The translations under genes were made by a program, and so were the position numbers. Positions 1 through 17,316 of a stretch of 64,000 bases of DNA are shown piece after piece (the first letter of the stretch is position 1; every line of letters begins with the position of its first letter). The notes beneath the pieces were generated by a model. That model was not told the origin of the DNA, did not search any database, and saw only the letters and a list, made by a program, of their open reading frames with translations. Source of the stretch: Paracoccus sp. (in: a-proteobacteria) (lineage in GTDB: Bacteria; Pseudomonadota; Alphaproteobacteria; Rhodobacterales; Rhodobacteraceae). The DNA is taken from positions 1 to 64,000 of the forward strand of contig NZ_JAUNTJ010000004.1 of NCBI RefSeq assembly GCF_030538755.1, read 5' to 3'.

Positions 1-51
1 CAGCACGAAGCCGCCTGATCAACGAAATCCAAAGCGGTAGAAACCGGGCGG

Positions 52-222
52 TTACTTCATACCGGCTTTGATGGCCGACCATTCAGCGGGGGTCAGCTGT
101 TCCTGACCCGTAATAACTTCGCTTGCACCTCCGACAGCACGGTTCGTACCCAGCACCGCACCCGCCACCGCCAGATAACATGCGCCTGCACTGGCCGCGC
201 CGCAGTCGTCGTCGGTGGCCAC
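52..222 (-). pseudogene. truncated pretoxin fragment (copy 1)
   Basis: From a GTG at 220-222 this frame encodes about 56 residues that match the first 56 residues of the toxin gene at 997-1623 almost exactly (same start, same run up to SAIKAGMK). It then hits TAA at 52-54. The homology to the other copies stops at base 55, so the truncation is a rearrangement junction and not a point mutation. A TAA two codons upstream of the GTG closes the frame on the 5' side. I read it as the leftover of a third toxin module whose toxin and immunity parts were lost or lie outside the window. Confidence 0.6.
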
Positions 223-300
223 AGATTACGTCCCGCAGGGATGGCCATCACCGCAATCCTCGCAGGGGCCGAGGCCGTCTACTTCACCAAGCAGAACCTC
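55..300. repeat. toxin-module repeat, unit 1
   Basis: Unit 1 of a three-copy dispersed direct repeat. Bases 55-222 align without gaps to 1456-1623 (offset 1401), and similarity continues into the plus-strand small gene to about 300. It carries the start of the minus-strand pretoxin and the start of the plus-strand small gene, 18 bp apart. Confidence 0.7.
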
Positions 301-449
301 GGAAAGATCGGATTCCAAGATACCGTCCAGCTTATCAAAAACGACCGCACCAGCTATTGGTGCAGCCGCCAGGAGGCCCCAAACCCATACAGGACGCAAC
401 AGTCGGATATTTCTACCCCATCAGGATGGAGGGTTTTCAAATAGAATGA
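241..449 (+). pseudogene. small conserved protein, copy 1, frameshifted
   Basis: This copy starts like the intact copies at 1642 and 2806 (MAITAILAGAEAVYFTKQNL). After the conserved YWC motif the frame is lost between about 375 and 392. The original frame stops at 442-444, while the +1 frame carries the expected ending (PIQDAT, then GYFYPIRMEGFQIE) and stops at 447-449. The second conserved cysteine has become tyrosine. The indel and this substitution indicate a decaying copy. It overlaps the 3' end of the convergent immunity gene by a few bases. Confidence 0.6.
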
Positions 450-1000
450 TCAATCCACAAAGCGTGAAAGCCCCCTCGATAGGAAACCTGCTCCTCTACA
501 TCTTCTATTAAATGTGACATGTGTAAATGTGAGACCCCAGATGGCTCCGATACACCAAACCGTTCAAATAATGTTATCCCAGTCTCCGCAGTCCGCTCAG
601 CAAACCCAGAAATGTCCACGTTGCGATACAGCAATTTATTCCACCTATCCGTTGATAAGACGATCCCGACTTCGGACCCCCAAAGGTTTGGCTCTGTAAT
701 GATACAATAAGTCCGGACAATTTCAGGAAAAGCACCCGAGGAAAACACCATTTCTCTGCCCTCATTGCTGATCGCTTCCATCTTGCAAATCAAGCACTGG
801 ACGCAGAATGCTCGAATGGCACGATTTTGATAAGAATCTTCAATAAGTTTATATGGGAATGGCAATTTCCAAGAAAAATAGTCAGGAGTCGCCTCTTTTA
901 TAGGCATACCTCCAATAGATTCAGCTGAAGAAGCCCAATCGAACAGGTTATTCATAAACGACCTAAGATCTGCGGCATGCCCGCCAAAGGCATCACTCAC
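437..1000 (-). CDS. putative immunity protein (DUF3916-like)
   Basis: A 187-residue cytosolic protein with no signal peptide or membrane segment. Its ATG overlaps the stop codon of the toxin gene upstream (bases 997-1000), the usual coupling for a toxin and its immunity protein. The spacing of DYFSWKLPFPYKL, a central RAFCVQCL helix and PNLWGSEVG recalls the DUF3916 family, whose members occur beside polymorphic toxins. That match is from memory and would need a profile search. By eye the gene is clearly more AT-rich than the housekeeping genes in the window, which fits acquired material. Predicted role: binding and neutralising the toxin encoded at 997-1623. Confidence 0.55.
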   Translation of the reverse strand: MSDAFGGHAADLRSFMNNLFDWASSAESIGGMPIKEATPDYFSWKLPFPYKLIEDSYQNRAIRAFCVQCLICKMEAISNEGREMVFSSGAFPEIVRTYCIITEPNLWGSEVGIVLSTDRWNKLLYRNVDISGFAERTAETGITLFERFGVSEPSGVSHLHMSHLIEDVEEQVSYRGGFHALWIDHSI

Positions 1001-1623
1001 GGCAGAATCCGATCCGCTGGAAGATTTCCAAGATTTTTACCGGCAAGATCAACTTTAATCCTGGGATTTCCCCTCGCATCAAAAACCTCAAGATGATTCT
1101 TGTGTAATCCGTCAAGATAGAACTGATCGCCTTTACGAATCTTACTTCCATCTTGCAGAACGATGTCCGCATCAGCCTTATAAACTCTCTGCCCCTGATA
1201 GACCTTAGCAGTCCTGCTCGAGGCGGACTTAAACACACGACCCGTTATTGTATCAAAAAACGCATTGATATTATGAACAGGCACACTTGGTAAGTCTGCG
1301 CCAACCGATTTTGGAACGCTGACTGTCCTATTTGTTGCCACCTCCTTCGCGGCAATGACGGCTCCGCCTTTGGTAATGATGGCAACGCCTTGGACGATAG
1401 TAACCGTTGCAACGCCAGTTTCAACCCAGCCGATCAGCTGTCTTGCGTCTTCAGGCTTCATACCGGCTTTGATAGCCGACCATTCAGCGGGGGTCAGCTG
1501 TTCCTGACCCGTAATAACTTCGCTTGCACCTCCGACAGCACGGTTCGTACCCAGCACCGCACCCGCCACCGCCAGATAACATGCGCCTGCACTGGCCGCG
1601 CCGCAGTCGTCGTCGGTGGCCAC
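997..1623 (-). CDS. orphan polymorphic-toxin C-terminal module 1
   Basis: 208 residues from a GTG at 1621-1623; an in-frame TAA two codons earlier rules out a longer protein. Residues 1-99 are a hydrophobic alanine/glycine/valine-rich pretoxin segment shared with the module at 2130-2801 and ending in VATNR. Residues 100-208 are unique. The C-terminal part has Asp171, His174, His177 and Glu179 in YLDGLHKNHLEVFD followed by RGN. This is loosely like the D-x-x-H / H-x-E-V-x-D arrangement of colicin-E3-type ribonuclease domains, so a nuclease toxin is plausible but unproven. There is no filamentous haemagglutinin, RHS or secretion domain, so it is an orphan module that would need recombination with a full-length carrier to be delivered. 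The immunity gene follows with a 4-base overlap. Confidence 0.6.
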   Translation of the reverse strand: MATDDDCGAASAGACYLAVAGAVLGTNRAVGGASEVITGQEQLTPAEWSAIKAGMKPEDARQLIGWVETGVATVTIVQGVAIITKGGAVIAAKEVATNRTVSVPKSVGADLPSVPVHNINAFFDTITGRVFKSASSRTAKVYQGQRVYKADADIVLQDGSKIRKGDQFYLDGLHKNHLEVFDARGNPRIKVDLAGKNLGNLPADRILP

Positions 1624-1690
1624 AGATTACGTCCCGCAGGGATGGCCATCACCGCAATCCTTGCAGGGGCCGGGGCCGTCTACTTCACAA
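1329..1690. repeat. toxin-module repeat, unit 2
   Basis: Unit 2 of the repeat. From 1329 to about 1597 it is nearly identical to 2531-2796. From 1456 onward it also matches unit 1. The left boundary falls exactly at the VATNR codons of the toxin gene, so the repeat corresponds to the constant pretoxin half of the gene and the variable toxin half is excluded. Confidence 0.75.
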
Positions 1691-1860
1691 AGCAAAACCT
1701 CGATACCGCCAGCTTCACCGACGCAATCCAACGCATCCAAAACGACGATGACGCATTCTGGTGCAAACGCGCAGCGGCAAGCATCGTCCAGGACGCAACT
1801 GGCGCATACTTCTGCGCAATCAGAATGGAAAAATATCAGTCAGAGGAAGGCGGGGAGTGA
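1642..1860 (+). CDS. small conserved protein of unknown function, copy 2
   Basis: 72 residues. The N-terminus (MAITAILAGAGAVYF) is hydrophobic enough for a single membrane segment or short signal sequence. A hydrophilic part follows with a conserved AFWC and a later YFC before AIRMEKYQ. Copy 3 at 2806 differs from it mainly at third codon positions, so selection has acted on this reading frame and not only on the antisense pretoxin. It starts 18 bp from the divergent toxin gene and ends 3 bp before the convergent immunity gene. The AGGG just before the ATG is too close to be a good ribosome site, so expression is uncertain. I do not recognise the family. Confidence 0.6.
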   Translation: MAITAILAGAGAVYFTKQNLDTASFTDAIQRIQNDDDAFWCKRAAASIVQDATGAYFCAIRMEKYQSEEGGE

Positions 1861-1863
1861 AAA

Positions 1864-2133
1864 TTACGTCAAGCCATCGGACAAACCAAAATTATCAAGA
1901 AAATCTGATAAATACTGGCGTTGAAAATCGTTGACCTCTGCCCCCACCATTTCTCGGATAATTGCCGCGAACCTTGCCAACTCAAGCCCTTCGATCTGCT
2001 GAAGGGATGCGCCAACACTTTCCATCAAAGCAACAGCATAGTCGCTGTTTATCTGTGAATCATCAGCCGTTTCCAGCTGAAACAACAGTTCGGAAAGCGT
2101 TCCCGTCAAAGCCCTTTCTAGTGAATCTGTCAT
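1864..2133 (-). CDS. putative immunity protein of toxin module 2
   Basis: 89 residues, acidic and probably helical, starting in a 4-base ATGA overlap with the end of the toxin gene at 2130. Size, acidity, position and overlap all fit a dedicated immunity protein for the nuclease-like toxin upstream. I see no known motif and no membrane segment, so the function rests on context alone. It shares no visible similarity with the other immunity protein at 437-1000, as expected if each toxin has its own antidote. Confidence 0.55.
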   Translation of the reverse strand: MTDSLERALTGTLSELLFQLETADDSQINSDYAVALMESVGASLQQIEGLELARFAAIIREMVGAEVNDFQRQYLSDFLDNFGLSDGLT

Positions 2134-2801
2134 TCTGGCACCACCCTCACGGTTATGTTCGAAACATTCAGATCGTTAAACATTCTGGTCGCACGATCCG
2201 CTTGCGCTTGCGTCGGTACTTCCCAACGTCCAGTTAGGCCATTTTGTTGTAGAGCCTCAGATTGCCGAAGAACTTGGTCTTTTGCTTTTTGCGTGGTGAC
2301 GACGGACAACTTTCTGTCGATCAAAACGTCGCCATCAACACCATCGAAGCGCACAGACGTCGTCTGTCCGTCGGACGTAGTTCTTGATAGCGCCGGTGCC
2401 TGACCCTTGTGGGTTTCAATATTTGAACGAGACCCCATAGCGCCTTCATCATAAGCCCGAGCCCTCGGGCTCATACTGGCACCTTCATCTACCCAAGCAA
2501 CCTTCTCGTTAGCCAAGCTACCGATTGGTCTATTTGTTGCCACTTCCTTCGCGGTAATGACGGCTCCGCCTTTGGTAATGATGGCAACGCCATGGACGAT
2601 AGTAACCGTTGCAACGCCAGTTTCAACCCAGCCGATCAGCTGTCTTGCGTCTTCAGGCTTCATACCGGCTTTGATAGCCGACCATTCAGCGGGGGTCAGC
2701 TGTTCCTGACCCGTAATAACTTCGCTTGCACCTCCGACAGCACGGTTCGTGCCCAGCACCGCCCCCGCCACCGCCAGATAACATGCGCCTGTACTGGCCA
2801 C
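2130..2801 (-). CDS. orphan polymorphic-toxin C-terminal module 2 (PD-(D/E)xK-like)
   Basis: 223 residues from a GTG at 2799-2801. Residues 1-91 are the shared pretoxin segment, with an internal deletion near the start relative to the other copy. After VATNR the sequence is unrelated to module 1. The toxin part carries FDGVDGDVLIDRKL, with Asp156/Asp158 followed by Asp162-x-Lys164. This fits the D...(D/E)-x-K core of restriction-endonuclease-fold toxins, and SEALQQNGLTGRWEVP behind it fits the following helix and strand. A DNA- or RNA-cutting toxin is the likely role. Like module 1 it lacks any delivery domain, and it is followed by its own overlapping immunity gene. Confidence 0.6.
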   Translation of the reverse strand: MASTGACYLAVAGAVLGTNRAVGGASEVITGQEQLTPAEWSAIKAGMKPEDARQLIGWVETGVATVTIVHGVAIITKGGAVITAKEVATNRPIGSLANEKVAWVDEGASMSPRARAYDEGAMGSRSNIETHKGQAPALSRTTSDGQTTSVRFDGVDGDVLIDRKLSVVTTQKAKDQVLRQSEALQQNGLTGRWEVPTQAQADRATRMFNDLNVSNITVRVVPE

Positions 2802-2850
2802 AGGAATGGCCGTCGCCGCCCTGCTCGCGGGGGTCGGGGCCGTCTACTTC
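2531..2850. repeat. toxin-module repeat, unit 3
   Basis: Unit 3 of the repeat, nearly identical to 1329-1597 up to about 2796. A block of roughly 38 bases present in units 1 and 2 is missing around the divergent start region, which shortens the gap between the toxin GTG and the small-gene ATG to 4 bp. The sequence then continues into copy 3 of the small gene with lower identity. Confidence 0.7.
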
Positions 2851-3030
2851 ACCAAACAGAACCTCGACACTGCAAACTTCAACGACGCAATCGGGCTGAT
2901 CCAGAACGATACCCGCGCCTTCTGGTGCGACCGCGCAGGGGTCGTCACGCCAATCCAGGACGCAACGGGCGGGTACTTCTGCCCAGTCCGAATGGAAAAG
3001 TATCAGGCGCCAGAGAAAGGTGATCAATGA
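2806..3030 (+). CDS. small conserved protein of unknown function, copy 3
   Basis: 74 residues, aligned end to end with copy 2: hydrophobic start (MAVAALLAGVGAVYF), then TKQNLDTANFNDAIGLIQND, AFWC, a short variable stretch, and QDATGGYFCPVRMEKYQ. Two cysteines and a tryptophan are kept. It is the only copy followed by an ordinary gene, with corA starting 43 bp downstream on the same strand. It may be the ancestral chromosomal copy into which toxin modules later recombined (inference). No family recognised. Confidence 0.6.
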   Translation: MAVAALLAGVGAVYFTKQNLDTANFNDAIGLIQNDTRAFWCDRAGVVTPIQDATGGYFCPVRMEKYQAPEKGDQ

Positions 3031-3073
3031 CACACACCCTAGTCAGGCGGCAGACTGTAGCCAGAGGTCCGCC

Positions 3074-4030
3074 ATGCTGCACGCCTATCTGCCCGACAAT
3101 GGCGGCCTTCGCCCGCTGACCGGCGAGGATCTGACCCCGGCGCTGTGGGTCGATCTGTATCGCCCGCTGGATCGCCAGACCCGCCAGGTCGAGGAACTGG
3201 GCATCAGCGTTCCGACGCTGGCCGATATGGAAGAAATCGAAATCTCGAACCGGCTGTATCGCGAAGACGGCGTGGAATACATGACGGCGGTGCTGCCCGG
3301 CGAACTGCCCGATGGCAGCCGCGTCGCCATGCCAGTCACATTCATCCTGACGCCGCAGCGGCTGATTACCGTGCGCCACCACGAACCGCGCCCGTTCAAG
3401 ACCTTTCCCGACCGCGCGGGCCGGGCAACGATGGGCTGCGCCAGCCCCGACCGGCTGTTTCTGGGCCTGATCGAAGACATCGTGGCGCGGCTGGCCGATA
3501 TTCTGGAACATGCCGGCAAAGAACTGGAACAGACCACATCCGACGTTTTCCATAACGGCGGCCATGCGCGCACCGAGCAGTTGCAAGCCGCGCTGGTGCA
3601 GGTCGGGCGCACATCGGATCTGATTGCCAAGGTGCGGCTGGGGCTGCTGTCGCTGGAACGGGTGCTGGCGTTTTATGTCGTCGCCGCGCCCGGACGGCCC
3701 GACAGCGGGCGGATCAAACCAGTGGTGAAATCCTTGCAGCGCGATATTCAGGCGCTTGAGGTTCACGCCGACTTCCTGTCCTCGCGCATCGGCCTGACAG
3801 CGGATGCCACGCTGGGGATGATTAACCTGCAACAGAACAACGCCGTGCGGATGCTGTCGGTGGTCGCGGCATTGTTCCTGCCGCCCACGCTGATCGCCAG
3901 CATCTACGGGATGAACTTTGAACATATGCCGGAACTGGCCAGCCGCTGGGGCTATTACATCGCGCTTGGGTTGATGCTGCTGACCAGTCTGGCGACATGG
4001 CTGTTGATGCGGTGGAAGCGCTGGCTGTGA
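3074..4030 (+). CDS. corA: CorA-family divalent-cation transporter
   Basis: 318 residues, close to the usual 316-330. The large N-terminal cytoplasmic domain is followed by two C-terminal membrane helices. The family signature GMN is present in ASIYGMNFEHMPEL between helix 1 (about residues 258-280) and helix 2 (about 292-312), and the protein ends in basic residues (RWKRWL). Family role: homopentameric channel for Mg2+, and Co2+ or Ni2+ in some members, in the inner membrane. The start chosen is ATG 3074; an earlier ATG at 3020 would run through the end of the preceding small gene and adds no CorA-like sequence. Transcribed separately from ugpBAEC. Confidence 0.92.
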   Translation: MLHAYLPDNGGLRPLTGEDLTPALWVDLYRPLDRQTRQVEELGISVPTLADMEEIEISNRLYREDGVEYMTAVLPGELPDGSRVAMPVTFILTPQRLITVRHHEPRPFKTFPDRAGRATMGCASPDRLFLGLIEDIVARLADILEHAGKELEQTTSDVFHNGGHARTEQLQAALVQVGRTSDLIAKVRLGLLSLERVLAFYVVAAPGRPDSGRIKPVVKSLQRDIQALEVHADFLSSRIGLTADATLGMINLQQNNAVRMLSVVAALFLPPTLIASIYGMNFEHMPELASRWGYYIALGLMLLTSLATWLLMRWKRWL

Positions 4031-4132: not shown

Positions 4133-5452
4133 ATGACACGGATGTTTACGGCATCGGCCATCGCGCTGATCGCTTCGCTGACAGCCGCCGAGGCGCGGAC
4201 CGAAATTCAGTGGTGGCACGCCATGGGCGGCGAGCTGGGCGAAAAGCTGGAGGCCATCGCCACCGCCTTTAACGAAAGCCAGCAGGATTACACCATCACG
4301 CCCGCCTATAAGGGCACCTATCCCGAAACCATGACCGCCGCGATCGCCGCATTCCGCGCGCAGCAACAGCCCGCCATCGTGCAGGTGTTCGAGGTCGGCA
4401 CCGGCACCATGATGGCCGCCGAAGGCGCCATCGTTCCGGTTTACCAACTGATGCAAAACGCGGGCGAGCCGTTTGACCCGGCCAGCTATCTGCCCGCCGT
4501 CGTCGGCTATTACACCGATACCGATGGCAACATGCTGTCGCTGCCGTTCAACAGCTCGACCCCGATTCTGTATTACAACAAGGACGTGTTCGAAAAGGCC
4601 GGGCTGGATCGCGACACCCCGCCCAAAACCTGGGCCGAGGTCGAAGCATTCTCGAAACAGATCAAGGAATCCGGCGCGGCAAGCTGTGGTTTCACCACCG
4701 GCTGGGTGTCGTGGATTCAGACCGAAAACTTCAGCGCATGGCATAACCAGCCCATCGGCACCGGCCAGAACGGCTTTGACGGGCTGGATTCGCGGCTGTC
4801 GCTGAACGGCCCGGTGCAGGTCAAGCATTGGGGCAACCTGAAACGCTGGGCCGATGAGGGCATCTTCAAATATGGCGGCCCGGTGGGCGGCAATGACGCC
4901 CCGCCGATGTTCTATTCGCAGGAATGCGCGATGATTATGAACTCCAGCGCCAGCCGCGCCGGGGTCATCGCCAATGCGACTGACTTCGAACTGGGCTTTG
5001 GCATGTTGCCCTATTACGACGACGTCGAGGGCGCGCCGCAGAACACCATCATCGGCGGCGCAACCCTGTGGGTGCTGTCCGGCCGCCCCGAGGCGGAATA
5101 TACCGGCGTGGCCAGGTTCTTTACCTATCTGACCAGCCCCGAGGTGCAGGCAAGCTGGCATCAGGACACCGGCTATCTGCCGATCACGCAGGCCGCCTAT
5201 GACCTGTCGCGCGAACAGGGCTATTATCAGGCCAACCCCGGCGCGGAAGTCAGCCTTGAGGAAATCACCCTGAACGAGCCGACCGAAAATTCCAAAGGTC
5301 TGCGCTTTGGCAATTATGTTCAGATCCGCGGCGTGATCGACGAGGAATTCGAACAGATGCTGTCGGGCAGCAAGGATGCTCAGGCTGCGCTGGACGCGGT
5401 GGTATCGCGCGGCGATGCGCTGCTGCAAGAATTCCAGGCCCAGAACCAGTAA
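4133..5452 (+). CDS. ugpB: sn-glycerol-3-phosphate-binding protein UgpB
   Basis: 439 residues. A signal peptide ([21 protein letters not shown]) precedes a mature protein starting with [11 protein letters not shown], typical of UgpB. Extracellular solute-binding family 1; the residues WWHAMGG and YKGTYPET near the N-terminus, and GASCGFT (normally AACGFT) in the middle, follow the E. coli protein. It binds glycerol 3-phosphate or its phosphodiesters in the periplasm for UgpAE-UgpC. The ATG at 4133 has GGGGA upstream and directly starts the signal peptide; an upstream ATG at 4076 would add a non-signal extension. First gene of ugpBAEC. Confidence 0.93.
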
Positions 5453-5461
5453 CACGACAGC

Positions 5462-5484
5462 GGCGCCCGCGATATGCGGGCGCC
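5462..5484 (+). terminator. intercistronic hairpin between ugpB and ugpA
   Basis: A perfect 9-bp GC stem, GGCGCCCGC (5462-5470) and GCGGGCGCC (5476-5484), with a GATAT loop, followed by TCCTTT. Lying between the binding-protein gene and the permease genes, it probably protects the 3' end of ugpB mRNA or attenuates transcription so that the binding protein is made in excess. Confidence 0.7.
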
Positions 5485-5501
5485 TCCTTTCGGGACCAGC
5501 C

Positions 5502-6380
5502 ATGAAACGCACCGTTTTCAACAACCAGCTTTTGCCGTGGCTGCTGCTGGCCCCGCAACTGGCGATTACCTTTGTGTTTTTCCTGTGGCCCGCCGCGCAG
5601 GCCGTCTTTCAGAGCTTTCTGCGGCAGGATGCGTTCGGCATCCGCACCACCTTTGTCGGGCTGGCCAATTACCGCGCGCTGCTGAACAGCCCGGAATATC
5701 TGAACTCGCTGCAAGTCACGGCGATCTTCGCGGTATCGGTCACGGCGCTGTCGATGCTGACCGCGCTGCTGATGGCGCTGGCGGTGGACCGGATGATCCG
5801 CTCGACCCGCATCTATACGACGCTGCTGGTCTGGCCCTATGCGGTGGCCCCGGCGGTGGCGGGCATCCTGTGGTGGTTCATCTTCAACCCCACGGTCGGC
5901 ATTCTGCCCTATGTTCTGGGCGGCATCGGTTACAACTGGAACCACGTCAGTTCGAAAACCGATGCGATGATCCTTGTGGTGATCGCAAGCGCGTGGAAAC
6001 AGGTCAGCTACAACTTTCTGTTCTTCGTCGCCGGGCTGCAATCCATCCCCGCATCCCTGCGCGAGGCGGCGGCCATCGACGGCGCAGGCCCGGTGCGGCG
6101 GTTCTTTGACATCACCTTTCCGATGCTGTCACCCACCACGTTTTTCCTGCTGGTGGTCAATATCGTCTATGCCATGTTCGATACCTTTGCGGTGATCGAC
6201 GCCACCACGCGCGGCGGCCCTGCACAGGGCACCAATATCATGGTTTACAAGGTCTATTTCGACGGCTTCATCGGCCAGAACATGGGGTCCAGCGCCGCGC
6301 AATCGGTGTTCCTGATGCTGATCGTCATCACCCTGACCATTATCCAGTTCCGCTGGGTCGAAAAGAAGGTCGCCTACTGA
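5502..6380 (+). CDS. ugpA: glycerol-3-phosphate ABC permease UgpA
   Basis: 292 residues with six predicted membrane helices, nearly the length of E. coli UgpA (295). The binding-protein-dependent permease loop that contacts the ATPase is visible as [21 protein letters not shown] in the C-terminal third. The first residues [20 protein letters not shown] match the family start; the ATG lies 18 bp after the hairpin. The stop codon shares one base with the ugpE start (TGATG), so the two permeases are translationally coupled. Confidence 0.93.
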
Positions 6381-7228
6381 TGGTCGAAAACCGCCCCGGC
6401 CTGAACCTGCTGGCCCATCTGGTGCTGATCCTTGGCGTTGCCGCCGTCGCGCTGCCGGTATGGATCGCCTTTGTCGCATCCACCCATACCGCGACCGACT
6501 TCATGTCGGGCACGATCCCGATGTGGCCCGGACCGCATCTGGCTGAAAACTATGGCAGAATGTTGGATCGTGGCGTATCCACATCGGGCACGCCGCCGGT
6601 GGCCTCGATGATGTGGAACAGCCTTGTGATGGCGCTGTGCATTGCCATCGGCAAGATCATCATTTCCGTGACCTCGGCCTTTGCCATCGTCTATTTCCGC
6701 TTTCCGTTCAGGATGCTGGCATTCTGGTGCATCTTCATCACCCTGATGCTGCCGGTCGAGGTGCGGATCGTGCCGACCTTCAAGGTGGTGGCCGATCTGG
6801 GGATGCTGAACAGCTTTGCCGGCCTGTCGATCCCGCTGATCGCATCGGCCACGGCGACGTTTCTGTTCCGGCAGGTGTTCCTGACCATCCCGGACGAGCT
6901 GACCGAGGCCGCGCGCATCGACGGCGCAGGCCCGATGAAGTTCTTTCGCGACATCCTGATCCCGCTGTCGCGCACCAATATGGCGGCGCTGTTCGTGATC
7001 CTGTTCATCTATGGCTGGAACCAGTATCTGTGGCCGCTGCTGATTACCACCGATGCGAAATATTACACCATCGTCGCCGGTATCCGCCGCATGGCCGATG
7101 CGGTGGACGGGTTGCCGCAATGGCATCTGGTGATGGCAACCGCGATGCTGGCCATGCTGCCGCCGGTGATCGTGGTGGTCACGATGCAAAAGCTGTTCGT
7201 CAAAGGTCTGGTCGAGACGGAGAAATAA
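6380..7228 (+). CDS. ugpE: glycerol-3-phosphate ABC permease UgpE
   Basis: 282 residues, six membrane helices, partner of UgpA in the importer. The EAA loop reads [16 protein letters not shown], followed by [11 protein letters not shown], which is typical of UgpE and related MalG-type permeases. It begins inside the ugpA stop codon and is followed two bases later by ugpC. Confidence 0.93.
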
Positions 7229-7229
7229 C

Positions 7230-8249
7230 ATGGCATCCATTACCCTGACCGATCTTGGCAAGGTTTATACCGGCGGCACCCGCGCCGTGGGCGATGTGAA
7301 TATCGACATCGCCGATGGCGAGATGATCGTGCTGGTCGGCCCCTCGGGCTGTGGCAAATCCACGCTGCTGCGCATGGTGGCGGGGCTGGAAACCATCAGC
7401 GAAGGCACGGTGAAGATCGGCGACCGCGTGGTGAACAACGTCGAACCCGCCGACCGCGATATTGCGATGGTGTTTCAGAACTATGCGCTTTACCCGCATA
7501 TGACCGTGCGCCAGAACCTCGCCTATGGGTTGAAAAACCGCCGCACGCCCCGCGCCGAAATCGACCGCCGCGTGGATGAGGCCGCCGCCATCCTGCAAAT
7601 CGGCCCTTTCCTTGATCGCAAGCCCCGCGCCCTGTCCGGCGGCCAGCGTCAGCGCGTCGCCATGGGTCGCGCCATCGTGCGCGAACCGGCGGCGTTTCTG
7701 TTCGACGAGCCGCTGTCGAACCTCGATGCCAAGCTGCGGGTGCAGATGCGGCTGGAAATCCGCGAATTGCAGCGACGGCTGCGCACGACCAGCCTGTATG
7801 TGACCCATGACCAGCTAGAGGCGATGACGCTGGCCGACCGTCTGGTGGTGCTGAACGCGGGCCGCGTGGAACAGATCGGCACACCGATTGACGTTTACCG
7901 CCGCCCCGCCTCTGCCTTTGTCGCCGGTTTCATCGGCAGCCCGGCGATGAACCTGATCCCCGCCCGCGCCGTGCCGCACCTGCCCGGCAGCGCCCATGCC
8001 GGCCTGATCGGCATCCGCCCCGAGGATCTGGCCCCAACCCCCGGCGGCCCGATCGAGATGACCATTTCAGCGGTCGAGGAACTGGGCGCGCAGCGTCTGG
8101 TCCATGGCCGGGTCAATGGCGAGCTGCTGACCGTCACCCTGCCCCCCGGCGCAGAGCTGCCCCCGGTGCTGCACCTGTCCGCCGCCCCCGAAGCACTGCA
8201 CCTGTTCGATGCAGAAACGGGCCAGCGCATCGGCCGGGACGGGGGCTGA
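7230..8249 (+). CDS. ugpC: glycerol-3-phosphate ABC ATPase UgpC
   Basis: 339 residues of the MalK/UgpC type. Walker [10 protein letters not shown] is at residues 37-45, the signature LSGGQRQR near 134-141, Walker [13 protein letters not shown] just after, and the H-loop THDQ near 190. A C-terminal TOBE-like regulatory domain (from about 235) includes IGIRPEDL. It powers UgpBAE; ATPases of this group can also serve other sugar importers. Last gene of the operon, with no ugpQ phosphodiesterase following. Confidence 0.92.
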
Positions 8250-8266
8250 ACCGGGTTGGGCCGGAT

Positions 8267-8289
8267 GGCAGGATCACCTTTCACCTGCC
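8267..8289. terminator. weak hairpin between convergent operons
   Basis: GGCAGG (8267-8272) and CCTGCC (8284-8289) can pair across an 11-base loop in the 112-bp gap where ugpC and the betaine operon converge. There is no T-run, so it is only a possible bidirectional terminator. Confidence 0.3.
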
Positions 8290-8361
8290 TGAACGCGACA
8301 CTGGTTGCCTTCAATCAGGGGCGCCCCCTCACAAGATGACGGCAAGGCGATACGGAAACTG

Positions 8362-9192
8362 TCAGCCTGCCCGCCGCCGCCGTTGCAGCGCCCCCTTGGA
8401 AAGCCGGTCAAGCAGCAACGCCACCGCGACGATGGCCAAACCTGCGCGCAGGCCAAGGCCCATTTCCATCCGCGTCAGACCGCGCGTCACCTCGGCCCCC
8501 AACCCTCCGGCACCGACAAGACCTGCCAGAACCACCATGGCCAGCGACAGCAGGATGCACTGGTTCAGACCGACCAACAGCGTGGGCATGGCGGCCGGAA
8601 GCTCGATCTTCCACAGAATGGTGCGAGGCCGGGCGCCAATCGCCTCGCCCAATTCTTTCAGGTCGTTCGGCACGCCACGAAAGGCCAGCGTCGTCAGGCG
8701 CAGCATCGGCGGGATGCCATAGACAATCGTGGCAATGATGGCGGGAACCTTGCCCAAGCTGAAAATCATCACGGCCGGAATCAGATAAACCCACGGCGGC
8801 ACGGTCTGCATCACATCGAGGACCGGGCGCAGGGCCGCTTCGACCCAGGGGTGTCGTGCGGCCATGATGCCAAGGGGAAAAGCGATGGCCACAGCAACTG
8901 TCACGGCGACGACGACCAGCGCGATGGTCTGCATCGAGCCAGTCCATAGCCCCATCAGCCAGCAGAACCCCAAACAGCAGGCCGACAGCACAGCAACGCG
9001 ATAACCTGCGACGAAAAAGGCCAGCACAGCGACCACAGCGATCAGCGCATAGGGCGGCAGCAGCAACAGCACGCCCTCGATGCTGCCCAGCACCGTCTCG
9101 ATCAATCGGGATACAGATGCAAAGAAGCCATGGAAGTTTCTGTTCAACCATTCGACAAGGGGGGCGAGGAAGGCTCCGGGATTAAAGGTCAT
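8362..9192 (-). CDS. betaine/choline-type ABC permease, second subunit
   Basis: 276 residues of the ProW/OpuAB family with several membrane helices and the EAA-type loop ELGEAIGARPRTILWKIELP. A long N-terminal region precedes the core helices, as in ProW. Its ATG overlaps the stop of the preceding permease gene (ATGA at 9189-9192). It is homologous to the gene at 9189-10016, so the importer has two different permease subunits where many bacteria use a homodimer. Last gene of the operon. Confidence 0.85.
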   Translation of the reverse strand: MTFNPGAFLAPLVEWLNRNFHGFFASVSRLIETVLGSIEGVLLLLPPYALIAVVAVLAFFVAGYRVAVLSACCLGFCWLMGLWTGSMQTIALVVVAVTVAVAIAFPLGIMAARHPWVEAALRPVLDVMQTVPPWVYLIPAVMIFSLGKVPAIIATIVYGIPPMLRLTTLAFRGVPNDLKELGEAIGARPRTILWKIELPAAMPTLLVGLNQCILLSLAMVVLAGLVGAGGLGAEVTRGLTRMEMGLGLRAGLAIVAVALLLDRLSKGALQRRRRAG

Positions 9193-10016
9193 TTCGCCCT
9201 CGCAAGGTTTTGGGTGACGCGATCCAGCACCATCGTCAGCACGACAATCGCGATCGACGCATTGATCGAAGTGGCGATGTCCAGGGTGCGGATAGCGCCG
9301 TAGATCGTCTGGCCAAGGCCCCCCGAACCGACGATCCCCGCGATCACCACCATGCCAAAGGCCATCATCAGGCTTTGATTCACGCCCGCCATGATCGAGG
9401 GCATGGCGAAGGGCAGCCGGATTTTCCAGAACATCTGTGCAGGCGTCACGCCGCTGGCATGGCCCAGTTCGATGAACTCATTGGGCGTCTGGCGAATACC
9501 CAGCGAGGTCAGCCGGATTGCTGGCGGCATCGCCACGATGACAGTCGCGACCAAAGCCGTCGCCGGACCAAAGCCCAAAAGCGCGATGGCCGGCAGCAGG
9601 TAGATATAGGGCGGCATGGTCTGGATCAGATCCAGCACCGGCACCAGCGCCCGGTCAAGCCTTGGCATCAATCCGGCCACCACGCCAAGCGGCAGGCTGA
9701 TGGCCAGTGCGATGACGCTGGCCGCAACGACCAGCGCCAGCGTCTCCATGGTTTCGGGCCACAGCCCCATGGCAGCGCAGGCGACCAGCGCGATGACGGT
9801 GGCAATCCCCGCCCAAAGGCTCAGCACGCGCCAAACCAACAGCCCGGCGATCACGGCGGCAAGGTAGAACGGCGGCAGCATCAGCAACCACAGCACGCCG
9901 CCATACAACCCTTCCAGAACAGCGCGGGCACCATCGAAGATAAAGGCAGCATGATCGGTCAGCCAGAACAGCGCATTGTCAACGGCGGTGTCAAACGTGG
10001 TGACGAAATTCTCCAT
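9189..10016 (-). CDS. betaine/choline-type ABC permease, first subunit
   Basis: 275 residues, ProW family, with the conserved loop IELGHASGVTPAQMFWKIRLP and VGSGGLGQTIYGAI near the C-terminus. It lies between the ATPase gene (9 bp upstream) and the second permease gene (overlapping), and has an AAGGGGGC ribosome site before the ATG. Role: inner-membrane half of an importer for quaternary amines such as glycine betaine or choline. Confidence 0.87.
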   Translation of the reverse strand: MENFVTTFDTAVDNALFWLTDHAAFIFDGARAVLEGLYGGVLWLLMLPPFYLAAVIAGLLVWRVLSLWAGIATVIALVACAAMGLWPETMETLALVVAASVIALAISLPLGVVAGLMPRLDRALVPVLDLIQTMPPYIYLLPAIALLGFGPATALVATVIVAMPPAIRLTSLGIRQTPNEFIELGHASGVTPAQMFWKIRLPFAMPSIMAGVNQSLMMAFGMVVIAGIVGSGGLGQTIYGAIRTLDIATSINASIAIVVLTMVLDRVTQNLARAK

Positions 10017-10025
10017 GACGCCCCC

Positions 10026-11081
10026 TTAATGCGCGGCGACGGCGGCATCGCCGCGCACACCCAGCAACAGATTGCGTATGGTGACGATGCCAACAGGCTT
10101 GCCGCCGTCCTCGACGCAAATCGCATCGCTGCCGGTCCGGGTGATCTGGCCAATCAGCGTGTCGATATCCGCCTCGGGCGAGCAGCGCGGCAACCCTTCG
10201 ACGGCGCCCTGCCATTGTTCGTGCGGGACCATGACCGAATGCGCCTTGACCAGATGCAGGCGCGAGATACCGGCAACGAAATCGGCAACATACTGGTCGG
10301 CCGGATTCATCACGATCTCTTCGGCATTGCCGGTCTGGATGATGACCCCATCCTTCATGATCGCGATGCGATCACCGATCCGCATCGCCTCATCCAGATC
10401 GTGGGTGATGAATACGGCCGACTTGCCCAGATCCTTGGTCAGTTGCCGGAATTCATCCTGCAACTGCCGCCGGATCAGCGGGTCCAGCGCGGAAAACGGC
10501 TCGTCCATCAGGATGATTTCGGGATCAGAGGTCAGCGCACGCGCCAGCCCGACCCGCTGCTGCATACCGCCCGACAGTTCTGAAGGGTAGCGCAGCTTCC
10601 AGTCCGACAGGCCGACCTTGTTCAGCGCCGCCTCGGCGGCACGGTTGCGTTCGTCGCGCGGCACACCCTGCACCTCTAACCCGAAGGCCGCATTTTCCAG
10701 CACGGTGCGCTGCGGCAACAAGGCTACGCTTTGGAAAACCATGCCGATATGACGGGCGCGGGTTTCGCGCAGGGTGGCGGCGTCCATGGCGGCGATGTCG
10801 CGCCCCTTGACCAGAACCTTGCCCAGGCTCGGCTCGATCAGCCGGTTAAGCAGTCGGATCAGCGTGGACTTGCCCGACCCCGACAAGCCCATGATGCAAA
10901 AGATCTCGCCCCGCCGCACCTGAATGCTGGCATCAGAGACCCCGACCACGCAGTTGAACTCTTTCAGAACGTCCTGCTTGCCGATGCCCCGCCGGGTGAT
11001 TGCCCTGATCGCCTCTTGGCTGCGGTTGCCGAATACTTTCCAGACCGACTGACAGTCGATAAGCACCTCGGTATTTCCCAT
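10026..11081 (-). CDS. betaine/choline-type ABC ATPase (ProV-like)
   Basis: 351 residues. Walker A GLSGSGKST is at 65-73, the signature LSGGMQQRVGLARAL about 174-188, and Walker B IILMDEPFSALDPLIR follows. The extended N-terminus (residues 1-55) and the C-terminal CBS-like segment (about 290-345, with GKPVGIVTIRNLL) are characteristic of ProV/OpuAA, where the CBS part senses ionic strength. Only about one CBS repeat is evident, so gating may differ from the tandem-CBS proteins. It follows the binding-protein gene after a GC hairpin. Confidence 0.9.
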   Translation of the reverse strand: MGNTEVLIDCQSVWKVFGNRSQEAIRAITRRGIGKQDVLKEFNCVVGVSDASIQVRRGEIFCIMGLSGSGKSTLIRLLNRLIEPSLGKVLVKGRDIAAMDAATLRETRARHIGMVFQSVALLPQRTVLENAAFGLEVQGVPRDERNRAAEAALNKVGLSDWKLRYPSELSGGMQQRVGLARALTSDPEIILMDEPFSALDPLIRRQLQDEFRQLTKDLGKSAVFITHDLDEAMRIGDRIAIMKDGVIIQTGNAEEIVMNPADQYVADFVAGISRLHLVKAHSVMVPHEQWQGAVEGLPRCSPEADIDTLIGQITRTGSDAICVEDGGKPVGIVTIRNLLLGVRGDAAVAAH

Positions 11082-11129
11082 GTCTTTCCCTGCCGCCTTA
11101 CCTTCTGGTTACTGCCCGTGGTGTTTCGG

Positions 11130-11148
11130 GGCGGCCCGTGGGGCCGCC
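11130..11148 (-). terminator. intercistronic hairpin after the betaine-binding protein gene
   Basis: A perfect 8-bp stem, GGCGGCCC (11130-11137) and GGGCCGCC (11141-11148), with a 3-base loop, sits just after the binding-protein stop and before the ATPase gene. It is the same arrangement as in ugpB-ugpA, and probably sets the excess of binding protein over transporter. Confidence 0.65.
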
Positions 11149-11156
11149 TTTCAGCC

Positions 11157-12008
11157 TTAGTAGGATTTGATGTTTTCCCAGCGTTTCAACAGATCCTCAT
11201 GCGCGACGGTCCATTCGGCCACGGCCTCGTCCATGGTCTTGCCGTCGTTCACGGCGGCATTGATCCGGGCGATCTCGGCAATCGGAACATAGACGCTGGC
11301 AATAATTTCCCGCGCTTCGGGGTTCGCCTCGGCGAAACCTTTCTGGCCGATCCAGTAATAGCTTTGCGGCGGGGCAAAGATGCCCTTCGGATCGTCAAGA
11401 AACTTGGTGTCGAATTGCAGGGCCATCCATGTCGGTTCCCACAGCATGACGGCGATCCAGTCCTGACGGTCCACGGCAGATTTCAGCGCGGCAGTCATGG
11501 CCGCGGTGCTGCCTTCGACCAGTTGCAGCGTCAGCCCGTATTGATCGACCGCATCGGCGGCCTCGCGCATCAGCCCGGCCCCCGGTTCGATACCGATGAT
11601 CTTTCCGCCAAAGCTGTCGGCATGTTCGTTCAGCTGTTCGACGGAATCGATCGGAACATATTTGGGCACGGCAATGCCCTGATAAAGCCCGTGCGACACA
11701 GGCGACAGCTTTTCCAGCCGGTTCATGTTTCTCTGCCAATAGTCGTGGGCGACGTAATCGGTCTGCGAGGCCATGATCTGGATGTCGCCCCTGGTCAGCG
11801 CGGCATAGGCGATCCCCCATTCGGAAAACTCGGTTACTTCGACGGTGTAACCCTTGTCTTCCAGCACCTTTCTGGTGATCCCGGTGATCGGGGTCAGGTC
11901 TTCCCAGATGATCGTGCCCATCTTGATGGTCCTGTCCTGGGCCAGGACCGGCGATGCAAGCCCCAGCGCGACCGCGCCGGCAGCAAGTGCCTTGAATATT
12001 TTACGCAT
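11157..12008 (-). CDS. glycine betaine/choline-type periplasmic binding protein
   Basis: 283 residues of the OpuAC/ProX fold. The signal peptide ends at LASPVLAQ, and the mature part begins DRTIKMGTIIWEDLTPIT. Several tryptophans and tyrosines (IIWEDL, FSEWGIAY, MLWEPTWMA, SYYWIGQ) could form the aromatic cage that binds trimethylammonium groups. The start has GGAGG five bases upstream. First gene of the four-gene importer; the 242-bp upstream region carries the CTAATGC motif described separately. The true substrate (betaine, choline, carnitine or a betaine derivative) cannot be told from sequence. Confidence 0.85.
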   Translation of the reverse strand: MRKIFKALAAGAVALGLASPVLAQDRTIKMGTIIWEDLTPITGITRKVLEDKGYTVEVTEFSEWGIAYAALTRGDIQIMASQTDYVAHDYWQRNMNRLEKLSPVSHGLYQGIAVPKYVPIDSVEQLNEHADSFGGKIIGIEPGAGLMREAADAVDQYGLTLQLVEGSTAAMTAALKSAVDRQDWIAVMLWEPTWMALQFDTKFLDDPKGIFAPPQSYYWIGQKGFAEANPEAREIIASVYVPIAEIARINAAVNDGKTMDEAVAEWTVAHEDLLKRWENIKSY

Positions 12009-12216
12009 AAGAGCCTCCGCTGTTTGTTTATTGGTTTCCGGCGAACCGGCTGGCGAACATCATCATTCCCCGGCCACGGCTGACGCCCTGGCGCATGGCT
12101 CGCCTCCGTTTCCAAAAGAATGAAAGGGATGGCCGGGCTTCAGGACGCCCCCACATCCCATAACAAGGATTTATCCAGCCTCGTCCGTTTCCGGGCAAAC
12201 GAGAATTTGCTTCTAT

Positions 12217-12238
12217 GCCGCATTAGCTAAACTGCGGC
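12217..12238. promoter_or_regulatory. palindromic CTAATGC site upstream of the betaine importer
   Basis: GCCGCA (12217-12222) and TGCGGC (12233-12238) flank TTAGCTAA (12223-12230). On the minus strand it reads TTAGCTAATGC. The CTAATGC heptamer recurs upstream of the DapA-like gene at about 17077-17083. CTAAT is the known core of GcvA-type LysR operators, and a GcvA-like gene is next door. The outer arms could alternatively form a terminator hairpin for that gene, which ends 12 bp away. The rest of the 12009-12250 gap shows nothing else I can name. Confidence 0.4.
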
Positions 12239-12250
12239 AAAACGCCCCGA

Positions 12251-13195
12251 TCAGCCCGCATCAGCGCGCAATGAGCCTAAAAGATGGGCTACAAACCCCG
12301 CCACTGCGGGATGTTCCATGGATTTCTGTTTGCAATTCAGGAAATTCCCGCGCCCGGCGGTGATCGGTGCGGGATGGGCAAAGACCAGATGGCCCTGCGC
12401 TATGTCACGCTGAACCATGTGATGCCAGCCCAGCATCACCCCTTGACCCCGCAGCGCGGCATTCATCAGCAGGCTGACCTTGTTCGTCGAAAGGCTGGAT
12501 GGCCCCTTGTTCCATTCTGCCCCTTGCGCCCGGAACCACTCGGCCCAGCCCAGCGGCTGCCAGCCGATGGCCTCGGCGCTCCAATGCCGGTCGTCCAGAT
12601 GCAACAGGTTCACGCCGTTCAGGCTGACCGCATCATCAAACGGGCCGTGGCGGTCCAGAAATTCGGGGCTGCATACCGGCTGCGCGATTTCCGGGAACAG
12701 GAAATGCAGTTCTTCACCAACCTCGCAGCGTTCGTTACCGCAGAGGATGGCAATATCCACATCGGCATAATTGCGCAGCGCGTCATCGGCGTCAGACGCC
12801 AGAACCGCAAAGCCCACTTCGGGATGAGAGGCGCGGAAACTGTCGATAAGCGGCTGTAGCCAGAACAGCGCCATCCCGTCCGTCGCCGAGATGGTAACGG
12901 TTCGCGGCCCTTCCTCTCCGGTCAGCATCGTGACGGCGGCGCTGATCGTGTCCAGCCCCGCCGTCACGGCAGTGAACAGGCCCGCCCCCTGTGGCGTCAG
13001 TTCCAGTGCATTGTGTTTGCGGACGAACAGCGGCACGTCCAGCGCCCGTTCCAGCAGGCGGATCTGCTGACTGACGGCGCCTTGGGTGACGTTCAATTCC
13101 TTGGCAGCCAGCGTAAAGCTCAGATGTTTGGCGGCCACCTCGAATGTTGCGAATGACCCCAGTGATGGCAGATAGCGACGCTTGCTTGGCGGCAT
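12251..13195 (-). CDS. LysR-family regulator, GcvA-like
   Basis: 314 residues. The N-terminal winged helix (about 8-66) reads SFATFEVAAKHLSFTLAAKEL then NVTQGAVSQQIRLLE, very close to the GcvA subgroup; the substrate-binding domain spans about 95-300. It lies 22 bp after the FAD oxidase gene, so it is probably the last gene of the DapA-PuuC-PuuB unit and also sits just upstream of the betaine importer. That position suggests it controls both. The inducer is unknown. Confidence 0.88.
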   Translation of the reverse strand: MPPSKRRYLPSLGSFATFEVAAKHLSFTLAAKELNVTQGAVSQQIRLLERALDVPLFVRKHNALELTPQGAGLFTAVTAGLDTISAAVTMLTGEEGPRTVTISATDGMALFWLQPLIDSFRASHPEVGFAVLASDADDALRNYADVDIAILCGNERCEVGEELHFLFPEIAQPVCSPEFLDRHGPFDDAVSLNGVNLLHLDDRHWSAEAIGWQPLGWAEWFRAQGAEWNKGPSSLSTNKVSLLMNAALRGQGVMLGWHHMVQRDIAQGHLVFAHPAPITAGRGNFLNCKQKSMEHPAVAGFVAHLLGSLRADAG

Positions 13196-13217
13196 GGCTT
13201 CCCCTTTGACAACGGGG

Positions 13218-14564
13218 TTATTCTAGCCTTGCCTGCCATTCTTTCCAGCGCATATAGGCGTTTGCGCCGATCGTATCGAAAGGGTGCGGCGGCAGACGGC
13301 CCGGCTCGGTCTCGGCTGCGAAAAAATCGGTCACGTCGCTTGTCCGACCACAGGCCAGTTCTGCCGCACCGATTCCGGTCAATGTGCCGCGTGCGGTGCC
13401 CAATCCGTTCTGCACACAGGCAGCGTAAAGCCCCGGCTCCAGTTCGCGCATGACCGAAACGGCATTCCTCGACAGGCACAGGTGCCCCGACCAGGCATGT
13501 TCAAAGCGCACCCCCCGCAGCATCGGAAAGCGGTCGTCGAACTTTTTGCGCATGGCACGCACCAGCCGGGCAAGATCATTGGCGCTTGTCTGCATGTCGG
13601 GCCGGTAATACCCGCCTTGCCGGATAATGATGCGATGGCCGCCTTGCGCCGCGCCAATCCGGCGCACCGTGGTCCCCATCGGATCGGCAGGGGTGGCACC
13701 CCAGCATTCATGCCCGCCAAGTGCCCGCAACGCTTGGGGCGACAGTTCTTCGGTCATGCAGCCATTCAGCATGATGTGCATCAACCGGCCACGCCCAAAG
13801 CCAAAGCTTTCGAGATGTCCGTTATTTGCCATGACAAGCTTTTGCGCCCGCACCCTGCCCTGCGCGGTCGCCACCTCCCACCCTTGCGCCATGCTTTCGA
13901 TGCTCAGCACCGGCGACCGCTCATGGATGCGCACACCGGCACGCTCAAGCCCGGCGGCGATCCCCTGCACATAGCCCGCAGGTTGCAACATGGCCGTGCC
14001 AGGCGTGAAAAGCCCGTTCTGGTAATAGGTCGAGCCGGTGATCTCGGTCATCTGCCGGGCATCGAGAACCTCATGCACCTCGCCCATCTGGCGCAGATGG
14101 GCGGCATAGCTGATATTGGCTGCGATGCCCGGTGCCGAAGCGGCGGCGTTGATCTTTCCCGACCGTTGGAAATAACCGGCGGGGACAGCATATTCCGCAA
14201 CCGCCTGCGCCGCAAAGTCGATAGCGTGACGGTTCAGTTGCGTCAGTTGCCGGTTATAGCCGTCACCCGAACCGGCGTAATCGCTGGATGTCAGCTCATG
14301 CGGAAGATCAATCATAAAGCCCGAGTTGCGCCCGGTGCCGCCTTCGGCCACCTGTGCGGCATCCAGAATCACGACGTCCAGATCAGGGTCGATCTGTTTA
14401 AGACGCCGCGCAGCCGACAGGCCCGCAAAGCCGGCACCGATGATCGCAATATCGCACCCCGTGGCCCCCTCCAGCCGCGCCCGTGGCGGGACCGGGGGCA
14501 GGATAACGCTCCACCCTGCCGGGCCATTGAAGACCGGGGTGCGTATGGCCTTGTGCCGCGCCAT
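13218..14564 (-). CDS. FAD-dependent amine/amino-acid oxidase (PuuB/DadA-like)
   Basis: 448 residues of the DAO fold. The FAD-binding GAGFAG is at 43-48 in CDIAIIGAGFAGLSAARRL, and EGGTGRNSGFM follows, typical of the PuuB/OrdL group. The C-terminal region has WSGHLCLSRNAVS and QNGLGTARGTLTG. Such enzymes oxidise a C-N bond in gamma-glutamylputrescine, N-methyl amino acids or betaine-derived amines, giving an aldehyde or imine. Its start shares a base with the stop of the aldehyde dehydrogenase gene (TGATG), so product and consumer are made together. Confidence 0.85.
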   Translation of the reverse strand: MARHKAIRTPVFNGPAGWSVILPPVPPRARLEGATGCDIAIIGAGFAGLSAARRLKQIDPDLDVVILDAAQVAEGGTGRNSGFMIDLPHELTSSDYAGSGDGYNRQLTQLNRHAIDFAAQAVAEYAVPAGYFQRSGKINAAASAPGIAANISYAAHLRQMGEVHEVLDARQMTEITGSTYYQNGLFTPGTAMLQPAGYVQGIAAGLERAGVRIHERSPVLSIESMAQGWEVATAQGRVRAQKLVMANNGHLESFGFGRGRLMHIMLNGCMTEELSPQALRALGGHECWGATPADPMGTTVRRIGAAQGGHRIIIRQGGYYRPDMQTSANDLARLVRAMRKKFDDRFPMLRGVRFEHAWSGHLCLSRNAVSVMRELEPGLYAACVQNGLGTARGTLTGIGAAELACGRTSDVTDFFAAETEPGRLPPHPFDTIGANAYMRWKEWQARLE

Positions 14565-16069: not shown

Positions 16070-16071
16070 AG

Positions 16072-16989: not shown

Positions 16990-17316
16990 GTCGCTACCTC
17001 CTGTCGAAAGATCGTCCTTGGCAACAGGGGTAAGTCCGCCTCGCCCGCACCGCAAAGGAGAAGTTTAACGGGTCAGGCATTAGAAAAACTAAGTGAGCTT
17101 TCCGCGATCTTCGCCCGATCCGATCTTTCGATCTTCTTGATGTCAGGCTGCCAAGGGGAAACGGGCAGGTATGATATTCCAAGGCCAGTATCTGCAAGCT
17201 GCGGCGGCGACCGGCCTGCACCGGCAGGACCGCAAGGCATCGCAGCAACAAAGAACCGGCAGATCAGCGGAAAGGCCGATCCTGCCATATGGCGGTTAAT
17301 TGACAGCCCCTTGGGA
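16990..17316. promoter_or_regulatory. intergenic region with CTAATGC operator-like site
   Basis: This 327-bp gap separates the end of the glutamine synthetase gene from the DapA-like gene. I see no convincing gene in it. At 17080-17092 TTAG and CTAA form an inverted repeat around AAAAA; on the minus strand it reads CTTAG, T5, CTAATGCC. It shares CTAATGC with the site upstream of the betaine importer. It lies about 90 bp upstream of the DapA-like start, a usual distance for a LysR-type activator site. Confidence 0.4.

What the first reader, a model, noticed from the sequence alone, without database searches (positions are those of the whole stretch)
1..3030. Tandem orphan toxin/immunity modules with a constant pretoxin half and swapped toxin halves
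Seen: two minus-strand genes (997-1623, 2130-2801) share a near-identical first 91-99 codons, then differ completely after VATNR. Each is followed by its own overlapping small gene, and a third copy of the constant half is truncated at 52-222. Known: in contact-dependent and other polymorphic toxin systems, C-terminal toxin-immunity cassettes are shuffled by recombination within a constant region. Inference: this is a cassette reservoir with VATNR as the junction. Unlike classic CdiA (VENN junction), there is no carrier gene nearby and each cassette is flanked by a small gene on the opposite strand.
Basis: partly seen in the sequence, partly recalled or inferred. Interest (0 to 1): 0.75.

Follow-up and report, generated by a model that had tools for sequence, protein, structure and literature searches.

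The report
Orphan CDI toxin-immunity cassette array
A Paracoccus chromosome carries a small inserted array of spare toxin-plus-antidote cassettes that look like the interchangeable tips of a contact-dependent bacterial weapon, each next to a leftover piece of an opposite-strand gene that may help cassettes swap.

Summary
The genome falls in the genus Paracoccus. The shared 91-99 residues remotely match the cytoplasm-entry region of a 3,291-residue TPS/CdiA protein in another Paracoccus genome, between its VDNN motif and its toxin, with the same C-x7-C pair. Toxin half 1 is the C-terminal end of very large proteobacterial proteins; homologues of its partner lie just downstream there. Toxin half 2 and its partner recur as a pair in three other loci. 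Toxin-plus-partner DNA is 45-50% GC against 65% around it. So this is an orphan cdiA-CT/cdiI array, a known kind (PMC3150448), but without the VENN part and without any CdiB/CdiA found in the assembled genome. It is inserted between two chromosomal genes that are adjacent in a relative. The third unit is cut at a repeat that looks like a mobile-element end; a further toxin tail and partner lie on the other flanking contig. The opposite-strand small genes are remnants of a coiled-coil/membrane gene that stands tail-to-tail with an immunity-position gene in 8 of 10 other loci. That they serve as 3' recombination arms is inferred. Activity is untested.

The parts
1..55 (.). End of a repeated (probably mobile) element that cuts the third unit; also the contig edge
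   Evidence: 54 bp identical to the end of contig C26 and 52 bp to the start of C20, followed by different DNA each time
55..222 (-). const0: 5' part of a third constant (entry-domain) half
   Evidence: 100% identical to const1 in the 40-nt windows starting at 78 to 218; tblastn E 3.7e-32, 90%
241..444 (+). S0: degraded remnant of the opposite-strand S gene
   Evidence: profile match E 4.5e-29 with a stop inside (this copy was in the profile)
437..1000 (-). I1: predicted immunity protein (DUF3916, PF13079)
   Evidence: Pfam E 4e-11; homologues downstream of T1-type toxins in 6 of 32 loci
997..1326 (-). T1 toxin half
   Evidence: relatives in 32 loci of genome contigs, 4 of them at the end of ORFs over 2,600 aa; invariant D72, H75, E80, R106 in 15 sequences
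1327..1623 (-). const1: CdiA-CT-type entry domain, C-x7-C, ending VATNR
   Evidence: matches CdiA of G733 at 3058-3148, SW 94 versus a maximum of 71 in 2000 shuffles
1642..1860 (+). S1: C-terminal remnant of the S gene, convergent with I2
1864..2133 (-). I2: predicted immunity protein for T2
   Evidence: homologue behind the T2 homologue in P. albus (49%), G723 (83%) and L043 (43%)
2130..2528 (-). T2 toxin half
   Evidence: 79% identical fragment in a P. albus plasmid, 77% in IMG/VR contig L043
2529..2801 (-). const2: entry-domain half, first cysteine lost
   Evidence: 96% identical to const1, alignment
2806..3030 (+). S2: outermost S remnant
   Evidence: dN 0.22 and dS 1.06 against S1
3039..3046 (.). 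CTAGTCAG at the right edge of the insert, its only copy in the window; also at the left edge on contig C10 and in the empty site of G726 (possible 8-bp target duplication)
3074..4030 (+). corA-like chromosomal flank (name recalled)
   Evidence: 93% identical in G726, where a csbD-like gene precedes it with no array

Best explanation
It is an orphan cdiA-CT/cdiI array inserted between a csbD-like and a corA-like gene of a Paracoccus chromosome. Each unit encodes, on the minus strand, a CdiA-CT-type cytoplasm-entry domain, a different toxin domain and its immunity protein. Shown by sequence: the modular anatomy, homology to CDI-type proteins, foreign base composition of the toxin and partner parts, and the insertion site. 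Inferred: the cassettes do nothing offensive now because no carrier is present. The immunity genes can protect against neighbours that deliver T1, T2 or the toxin of the third unit (T0). When a cdiBA locus with a like entry domain enters the cell, homologous recombination in the entry-domain DNA (and perhaps in S on the far side) can load a new toxin and immunity pair.
For: Among 125 Paracoccus genomes the constant half matches, outside its own genome, only the post-VDNN region of a TPS/CdiA protein, with the same C-x7-C spacing. That protein has a TPS domain (E 1.7e-42) and an upstream ShlB-type transporter gene (E 4.1e-69). T1-type and I1-type genes stand together in 6 loci of Gammaproteobacteria. 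T2 and I2 recur as a pair in L039, L043 and L085. GC is 45.0% and 49.6% for toxin plus partner, against minima of 54.4% and 51.3% in equal windows of the remaining 61 kb. The empty site is in G726. A further toxin tail and immunity-like gene lie on contig C10.
Against: The constant-half match is remote: 28% over 71 aa, E 3.5e-4 for one genome, which I reckon at about 0.04 over 125. No VENN-type motif is in the array. No TPS protein or CdiB was found in the assembled genome, but about 13% is missing and the gap at the repeat is unread. T2 is not shown at the end of an intact full-length CdiA (in L043 the frames differ). I0 has only a SUKH match below the cut-off. No activity was tested.
Confidence: 0.85

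Rival explanations
1. The array is a decaying relic or pure immunity bank: cassettes displaced or acquired once, with only immunity genes (if any) under selection and no recombination role.
For: No carrier in the assembled genome; const0 cut at a repeat; S0 frame broken; only remnants of T2 in P. albus and G723.
Against: The T1 and T2 genes keep open frames of 208 and 223 codons. const2 and const0 are still 96% and 90% identical to const1 at protein level, which suggests recent duplication or conversion.
Confidence: 0.4
2. The cassettes serve another delivery route (phage-, T6SS- or Rhs-borne polymorphic toxin) and the CdiA likeness of the constant half is incidental.
For: Constant-half homology to CdiA is weak.
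Against: The match lies between the VDNN motif and the toxin end in a TPS protein, cysteine spacing is shared, and 4 of 32 T1 loci have very large ORFs. No relative of the constant half was found in viral contigs or plasmids and no PHROG matched the two toxin ORFs at E 0.1.
Confidence: 0.08
3. Each pair is an ordinary type II toxin-antitoxin operon that acts inside the cell.
For: Small toxin and partner genes that overlap by 4 nt.
Against: Toxin comes first with a shared pretoxin half; T1 homologues form the C-terminal end of very large ORFs in 4 loci.
Confidence: 0.02

Closest known systems
Orphan cdiA-CT/cdiI modules downstream of cdiBAI (Poole et al. 2011, PMC3150448; passages seen)
   Same: Tandem toxin fragments with cognate immunity genes, shared upstream segment, unrelated toxins, transfer between species, mobile-element damage
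   Different: No cdiBA locus found in this genome; cassettes start inside CdiA-CT (entry domain) and lack VENN; opposite-strand S remnant between units
CdiA-CT cytoplasm-entry domain (PMC9086364 and PMC11630599; passages seen)
   Same: Position between VENN-type motif and toxin in the G733 relative; cysteine pair; joined to unrelated toxins
   Different: Remote sequence class; receptor unknown
V. cholerae T6SS effector-immunity arrays by sequential displacement (PMC5361080; passages seen)
   Same: Arrays of displaced modules, and in two strains a short conserved region between units that usually lies downstream of effectors
   Different: Different secretion system and sequence; here the region is the 3' end of a convergent gene
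Rhs orphan recombination in Salmonella (PMC3967940; passages seen)
   Same: A segment shared by main gene and orphan (522 bp, 95%) lets an orphan toxin be loaded
   Different: Here no main gene was found

Membership tests
Orphan cdiA-CT/cdiI module | cdiA-CT fragment directly followed by its immunity gene | tested here: met
   4-nt overlaps; cognate pairing of T1/I1 types in 6 of 32 loci
Orphan cdiA-CT/cdiI module | Toxin half homologous to the C-terminus of full-length CdiA elsewhere | tested here: met
   T1: 4 of 32 loci show an ORF over 2,600 aa ending in it (L011, L018, L023, L027); these were not scanned for TPS domains. T2: only behind a CdiA-like frame in L043, judged by eye, weaker
Orphan cdiA-CT/cdiI module | VENN or other pretoxin motif at the start | tested here: not met
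   absent from 1-3030; PMC3150448 reports that some orphans lack it
Orphan cdiA-CT/cdiI module | Linked to a cdiBA locus | tested here: inconclusive
   none in the assembled genome; genome 86.8% complete and array gap unread
Orphan cdiA-CT/cdiI module | Functional toxin and immunity | not testable with these tools
   needs expression tests
CdiA-CT entry domain | Homology to the segment between pretoxin motif and toxin of a CdiA | tested here: met
   SW 94 versus a maximum of 71 in 2000 shuffles, residues 3058-3148, VDNNYL at 2899; remote, one protein only
CdiA-CT entry domain | Conserved cysteine pair | tested here: met
   C-x7-C in const1 and in G733; const2 lost the first cysteine
CdiA-CT entry domain | Dictates inner-membrane receptor use | not testable with these tools
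   -
Colicin E3-like rRNase (T1) | Match to a named colicin or Ntox profile | tested here: not met
   no such Pfam or NCBIfam model for T1 or for the 15 aligned sequences; the likeness of the D-x2-H-x4-E...R pattern is recalled only
PD-(D/E)XK nuclease (T2) | Profile or fold match | tested here: inconclusive

The most novel reading that the evidence does not exclude
In Rhodobacteraceae (and one Sinorhizobium replicon) the 3' end of a convergent coiled-coil/membrane gene, here called S, has become a standing 3' homology arm of CDI cassettes. With the entry-domain DNA as the 5' arm, toxin and immunity pairs are exchanged by two-sided recombination without loss of neighbours, and S fragments mark past exchanges.
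Probability: 0.3. Interest if true: 0.6.

Novelty: new variant of a known kind. Interest (0 to 1): 0.42.

Why it matters
Poole et al. (passages) noted that recombination at a shared segment would delete an immunity gene and intervening modules. A conserved far-side arm would offer a two-sided way out and a sequence tag for finding unannotated CDI cassettes. The array also adds an alphaproteobacterial entry-domain class and toxin types that no Pfam or NCBIfam model named here.

Tried and rejected
Type II toxin-antitoxin, phage-borne and Rhs/T6SS readings were considered (see rivals). L004, L037 and L038 (weak matches of the constant half) were read in six frames and dropped as chance: they lie over other genes in another frame, or (L004) in a repetitive intergenic stretch. 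PDB sequence hits of T1 (enolase, ribosomal, SSB and neurotoxin chains among others, E above 0.08) are noise. The NCBIfam SSB hit of 3 of 15 T1 sequences (best E 3.8e-5) probably rests on a short PNxGAVxN-like stretch, as in the PDB alignment; it was not followed. PF05860 found nothing in the 14 control genomes but did find 20 of 125 Paracoccus genomes (19 over the cut-off), G733 among them, so the zero in the own genome is meaningful within the assembled part. The CdiB query against the own genome had no positive control in the same call.

Against the S-arm idea: in G723 the S piece is 68% identical to S1 (95 of 140 aligned bases) while the adjoining I2 is 84% (228 of 270) and the toxin tail 93% (67 of 72). 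By protein score it is closer to S2 than to S1. So S and immunity gene do not always travel as one block. tblastn found no S at the P. albus, L043 and G733 loci. S was found in none of 297 other genomes of a class-wide sample. In some searches only up to 15 and 19 first-look candidates per genome were scored, so their counts are lower bounds. Four weak S hits (G695, G663, G658, G679; E 0.025-0.081) were not examined.
Full report
Setting. The window is G000:C25:1-64000 of a 3.01-Mb, 50-contig, 86.8%-complete genome, and base 1 is the contig's first base. The genus is Paracoccus by inference: the 'same genus' hit G504 has the coordinates of the Paracoccus albus plasmid NZ_CP115776.1, and contig C2 of the 'same genus' G670 has the length and hit position of the P. 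fistulariae plasmid NZ_CP067137.1.

Observation. The two minus-strand genes, their 4-nt-overlapping partners and the third truncated constant half are present. Between units 1 and 2 the DNA is 97% identical from the VATNR codons to near the start codon. Between units 0 and 1 the 40-nt windows are 39-40 of 40 identical over the constant half and the joint, then fall to 21 of 40 inside the opposite-strand gene.

What the constant half is. In the 394-genome family sample the only matches outside the own genome at E 0.001 were two that I judge to be chance (read). Among 125 Paracoccus genomes one further match came up, G733, in an open frame of 3,291 aa. That protein has a TPS secretion domain and a ShlB-type transporter gene upstream. 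Its VDNNYL motif is at 2899 and the match is at 3058-3148, before a different toxin end. The score is 94 against a maximum of 71 in 2000 shuffles. Both carry C-x7-C. The review PMC9086364 (passages) describes a CdiA-CT as an entry domain plus a toxin domain, with cysteines conserved in entry domains; PMC11630599 (passages) says the same of the two domains. So the orphans are joined at the entry/toxin boundary rather than at VENN.

What the toxin halves are. T1: 32 loci in genome contigs, a pattern-based scan. Four show ORFs over 2,600 aa ending in it (L011, L018, L023, L027; three gamma- and one betaproteobacterium). Many others are short frames, for example in Photorhabdus. Homologues of I1 (DUF3916) lie downstream on the same strand in 6 of the 32. 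Fifteen aligned sequences keep D72, H75, E80 and R106; the likeness to colicin E3 catalytic residues is recalled, and no profile supports it. T2: no named family. The pair T2 plus I2 recurs in the P. albus plasmid as a remnant with an unannotated toxin, in IMG/VR contig L043 beside a frame that looks CdiA-like by eye, and in G723 as a toxin tail plus I2. A PD-(D/E)XK nuclease is my guess from the DGVDGDVLIDRK stretch (recalled, untested).

Composition and place. T1+I1 is 45.0% GC and T2+I2 49.6%; constant halves are 57-64%; the rest of the window is 64.9%, and no equal-sized window there (50-nt steps) goes below 54.4% or 51.3% respectively. In G726, whose corA-like protein is the nearest (93%) of the 21 genomes searched, a csbD-like gene directly precedes corA with no array. 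The csbD-like gene precedes corA in 7 of 11 corA loci looked at, and none of the 11 has an S or constant-half match. In the own genome the csbD side is on contig C10. C10:57-637 encodes the tail of another toxin-like protein and an immunity-like protein with a SUKH match below the cut-off. The contig edges at C25:1 and C10:1 are 52-55-base repeats shared with other contig ends, so the third unit is cut by what look like mobile-element ends; whether it is one element or two is unknown. CTAGTCAG occurs once in the window, at the right edge (3039), and again at the left edge on C10, and stands in the empty site of G726, which would fit an 8-bp target duplication.

Carrier. No TPS domain and no CdiB were found in the assembled genome; 20 of 125 Paracoccus genomes have a TPS match.

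The opposite-strand gene S. It is found in 10 non-window places at E up to 0.001 (4, 5, 1 new). In 8 of 10 its 3' end is tail-to-tail with a gene in the immunity position. Three of these are named or homologous: I2 in G723, SUKH in G003 (no toxin gene seen behind it), DUF6990 in S. meliloti Ak57 pSymB beside a hemagglutinin-repeat cdiA. Five rest on position behind a toxin-like or CdiA-like frame, judged by eye except for the Endonuclease_NS_2 match in G387: G670, G724, G231, G387, G067. The two misses are G248, with a KptA gene in between, and a second G670 copy beside an IS5 transposase. Two weaker G723 hits (E 0.016 and 0.045) also face such genes, one of them Imm11. In G248, S is a 207-aa protein, by eye a coiled coil with a membrane segment, near a MobA/MobL relaxase gene. 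In most other places only C-terminal pieces of varying length remain. S1 and S2 differ twice as often at third as at first or second codon positions (30 against 15 and 14; dN 0.22, dS 1.06), so they descend from a real coding gene. None of 297 other genomes in a class-wide sample had S.

Mechanism. Most likely the array arrived as an insert and now offers immunity, and potentially donor toxins, for any CDI carrier with a like entry domain; this is inferred. PMC3150448 (passages) gives the precedent of functional orphan modules and states the problem that one-sided recombination deletes immunity genes. PMC3967940 (passages) shows loading through a 522-bp shared segment in Rhs. PMC5361080 (passages) describes sequential displacement, with a short conserved region between units in two strains. 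The step change in identity inside S between units 0 and 1 and its constant place fit a 3' arm; the G723 comparison is against strict co-inheritance.

Novelty. Orphan CDI arrays are known. I saw no description of S or of Paracoccus CDI arrays in seven literature searches (listings only, plus passages of five papers), in a library that lacks most subscription journals.

Noticed in passing
L045 (G733:C5) 4644-8053: Behind the full cdiBA of G733 lie further remnants: a second DUF6990 immunity gene with a 64% copy of the toxin end, and an I2-like gene (45%).
   Followed up: partly
L091 (S. meliloti Ak57 pSymB) 9911-17338: A cdiA with DUF6990 immunity gene; its cdiB-like gene is only 256 aa and stands next to an IS30 transposase; S is unannotated there, a minus-strand hypothetical being called instead.
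   Followed up: partly
L100 (G248:C23) 7075-11648: CdiA-like fragment (by eye), convergent KptA (PF01885) gene, long S and MobA/MobL relaxase side by side: a CDI remnant next to plasmid mobilisation genes.
   Followed up: no
L043 (IMGVR_UViG_2840750342_000001): A contig filed as viral carries a CdiA-like frame, a T2/I2 pair and five tandem look-alike ORFs of 417-461 aa.
   Followed up: no
window 1397-1424 and 2599-2626 (-): Promoter-like TTGAAA-16-TACTAT inside both constant halves, upstream of the toxin parts; 4 sites found in the region versus 2.2 expected, so not significant.
   Followed up: no
L039 (Paracoccus albus plasmid p1) 19980-20560: T2 fragment not listed as a gene in the record's table; its partner is called a hypothetical protein.
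   Followed up: yes
window 46809-46883: tRNA-Thr (tgt), the only tRNA found in the window.
   Followed up: no
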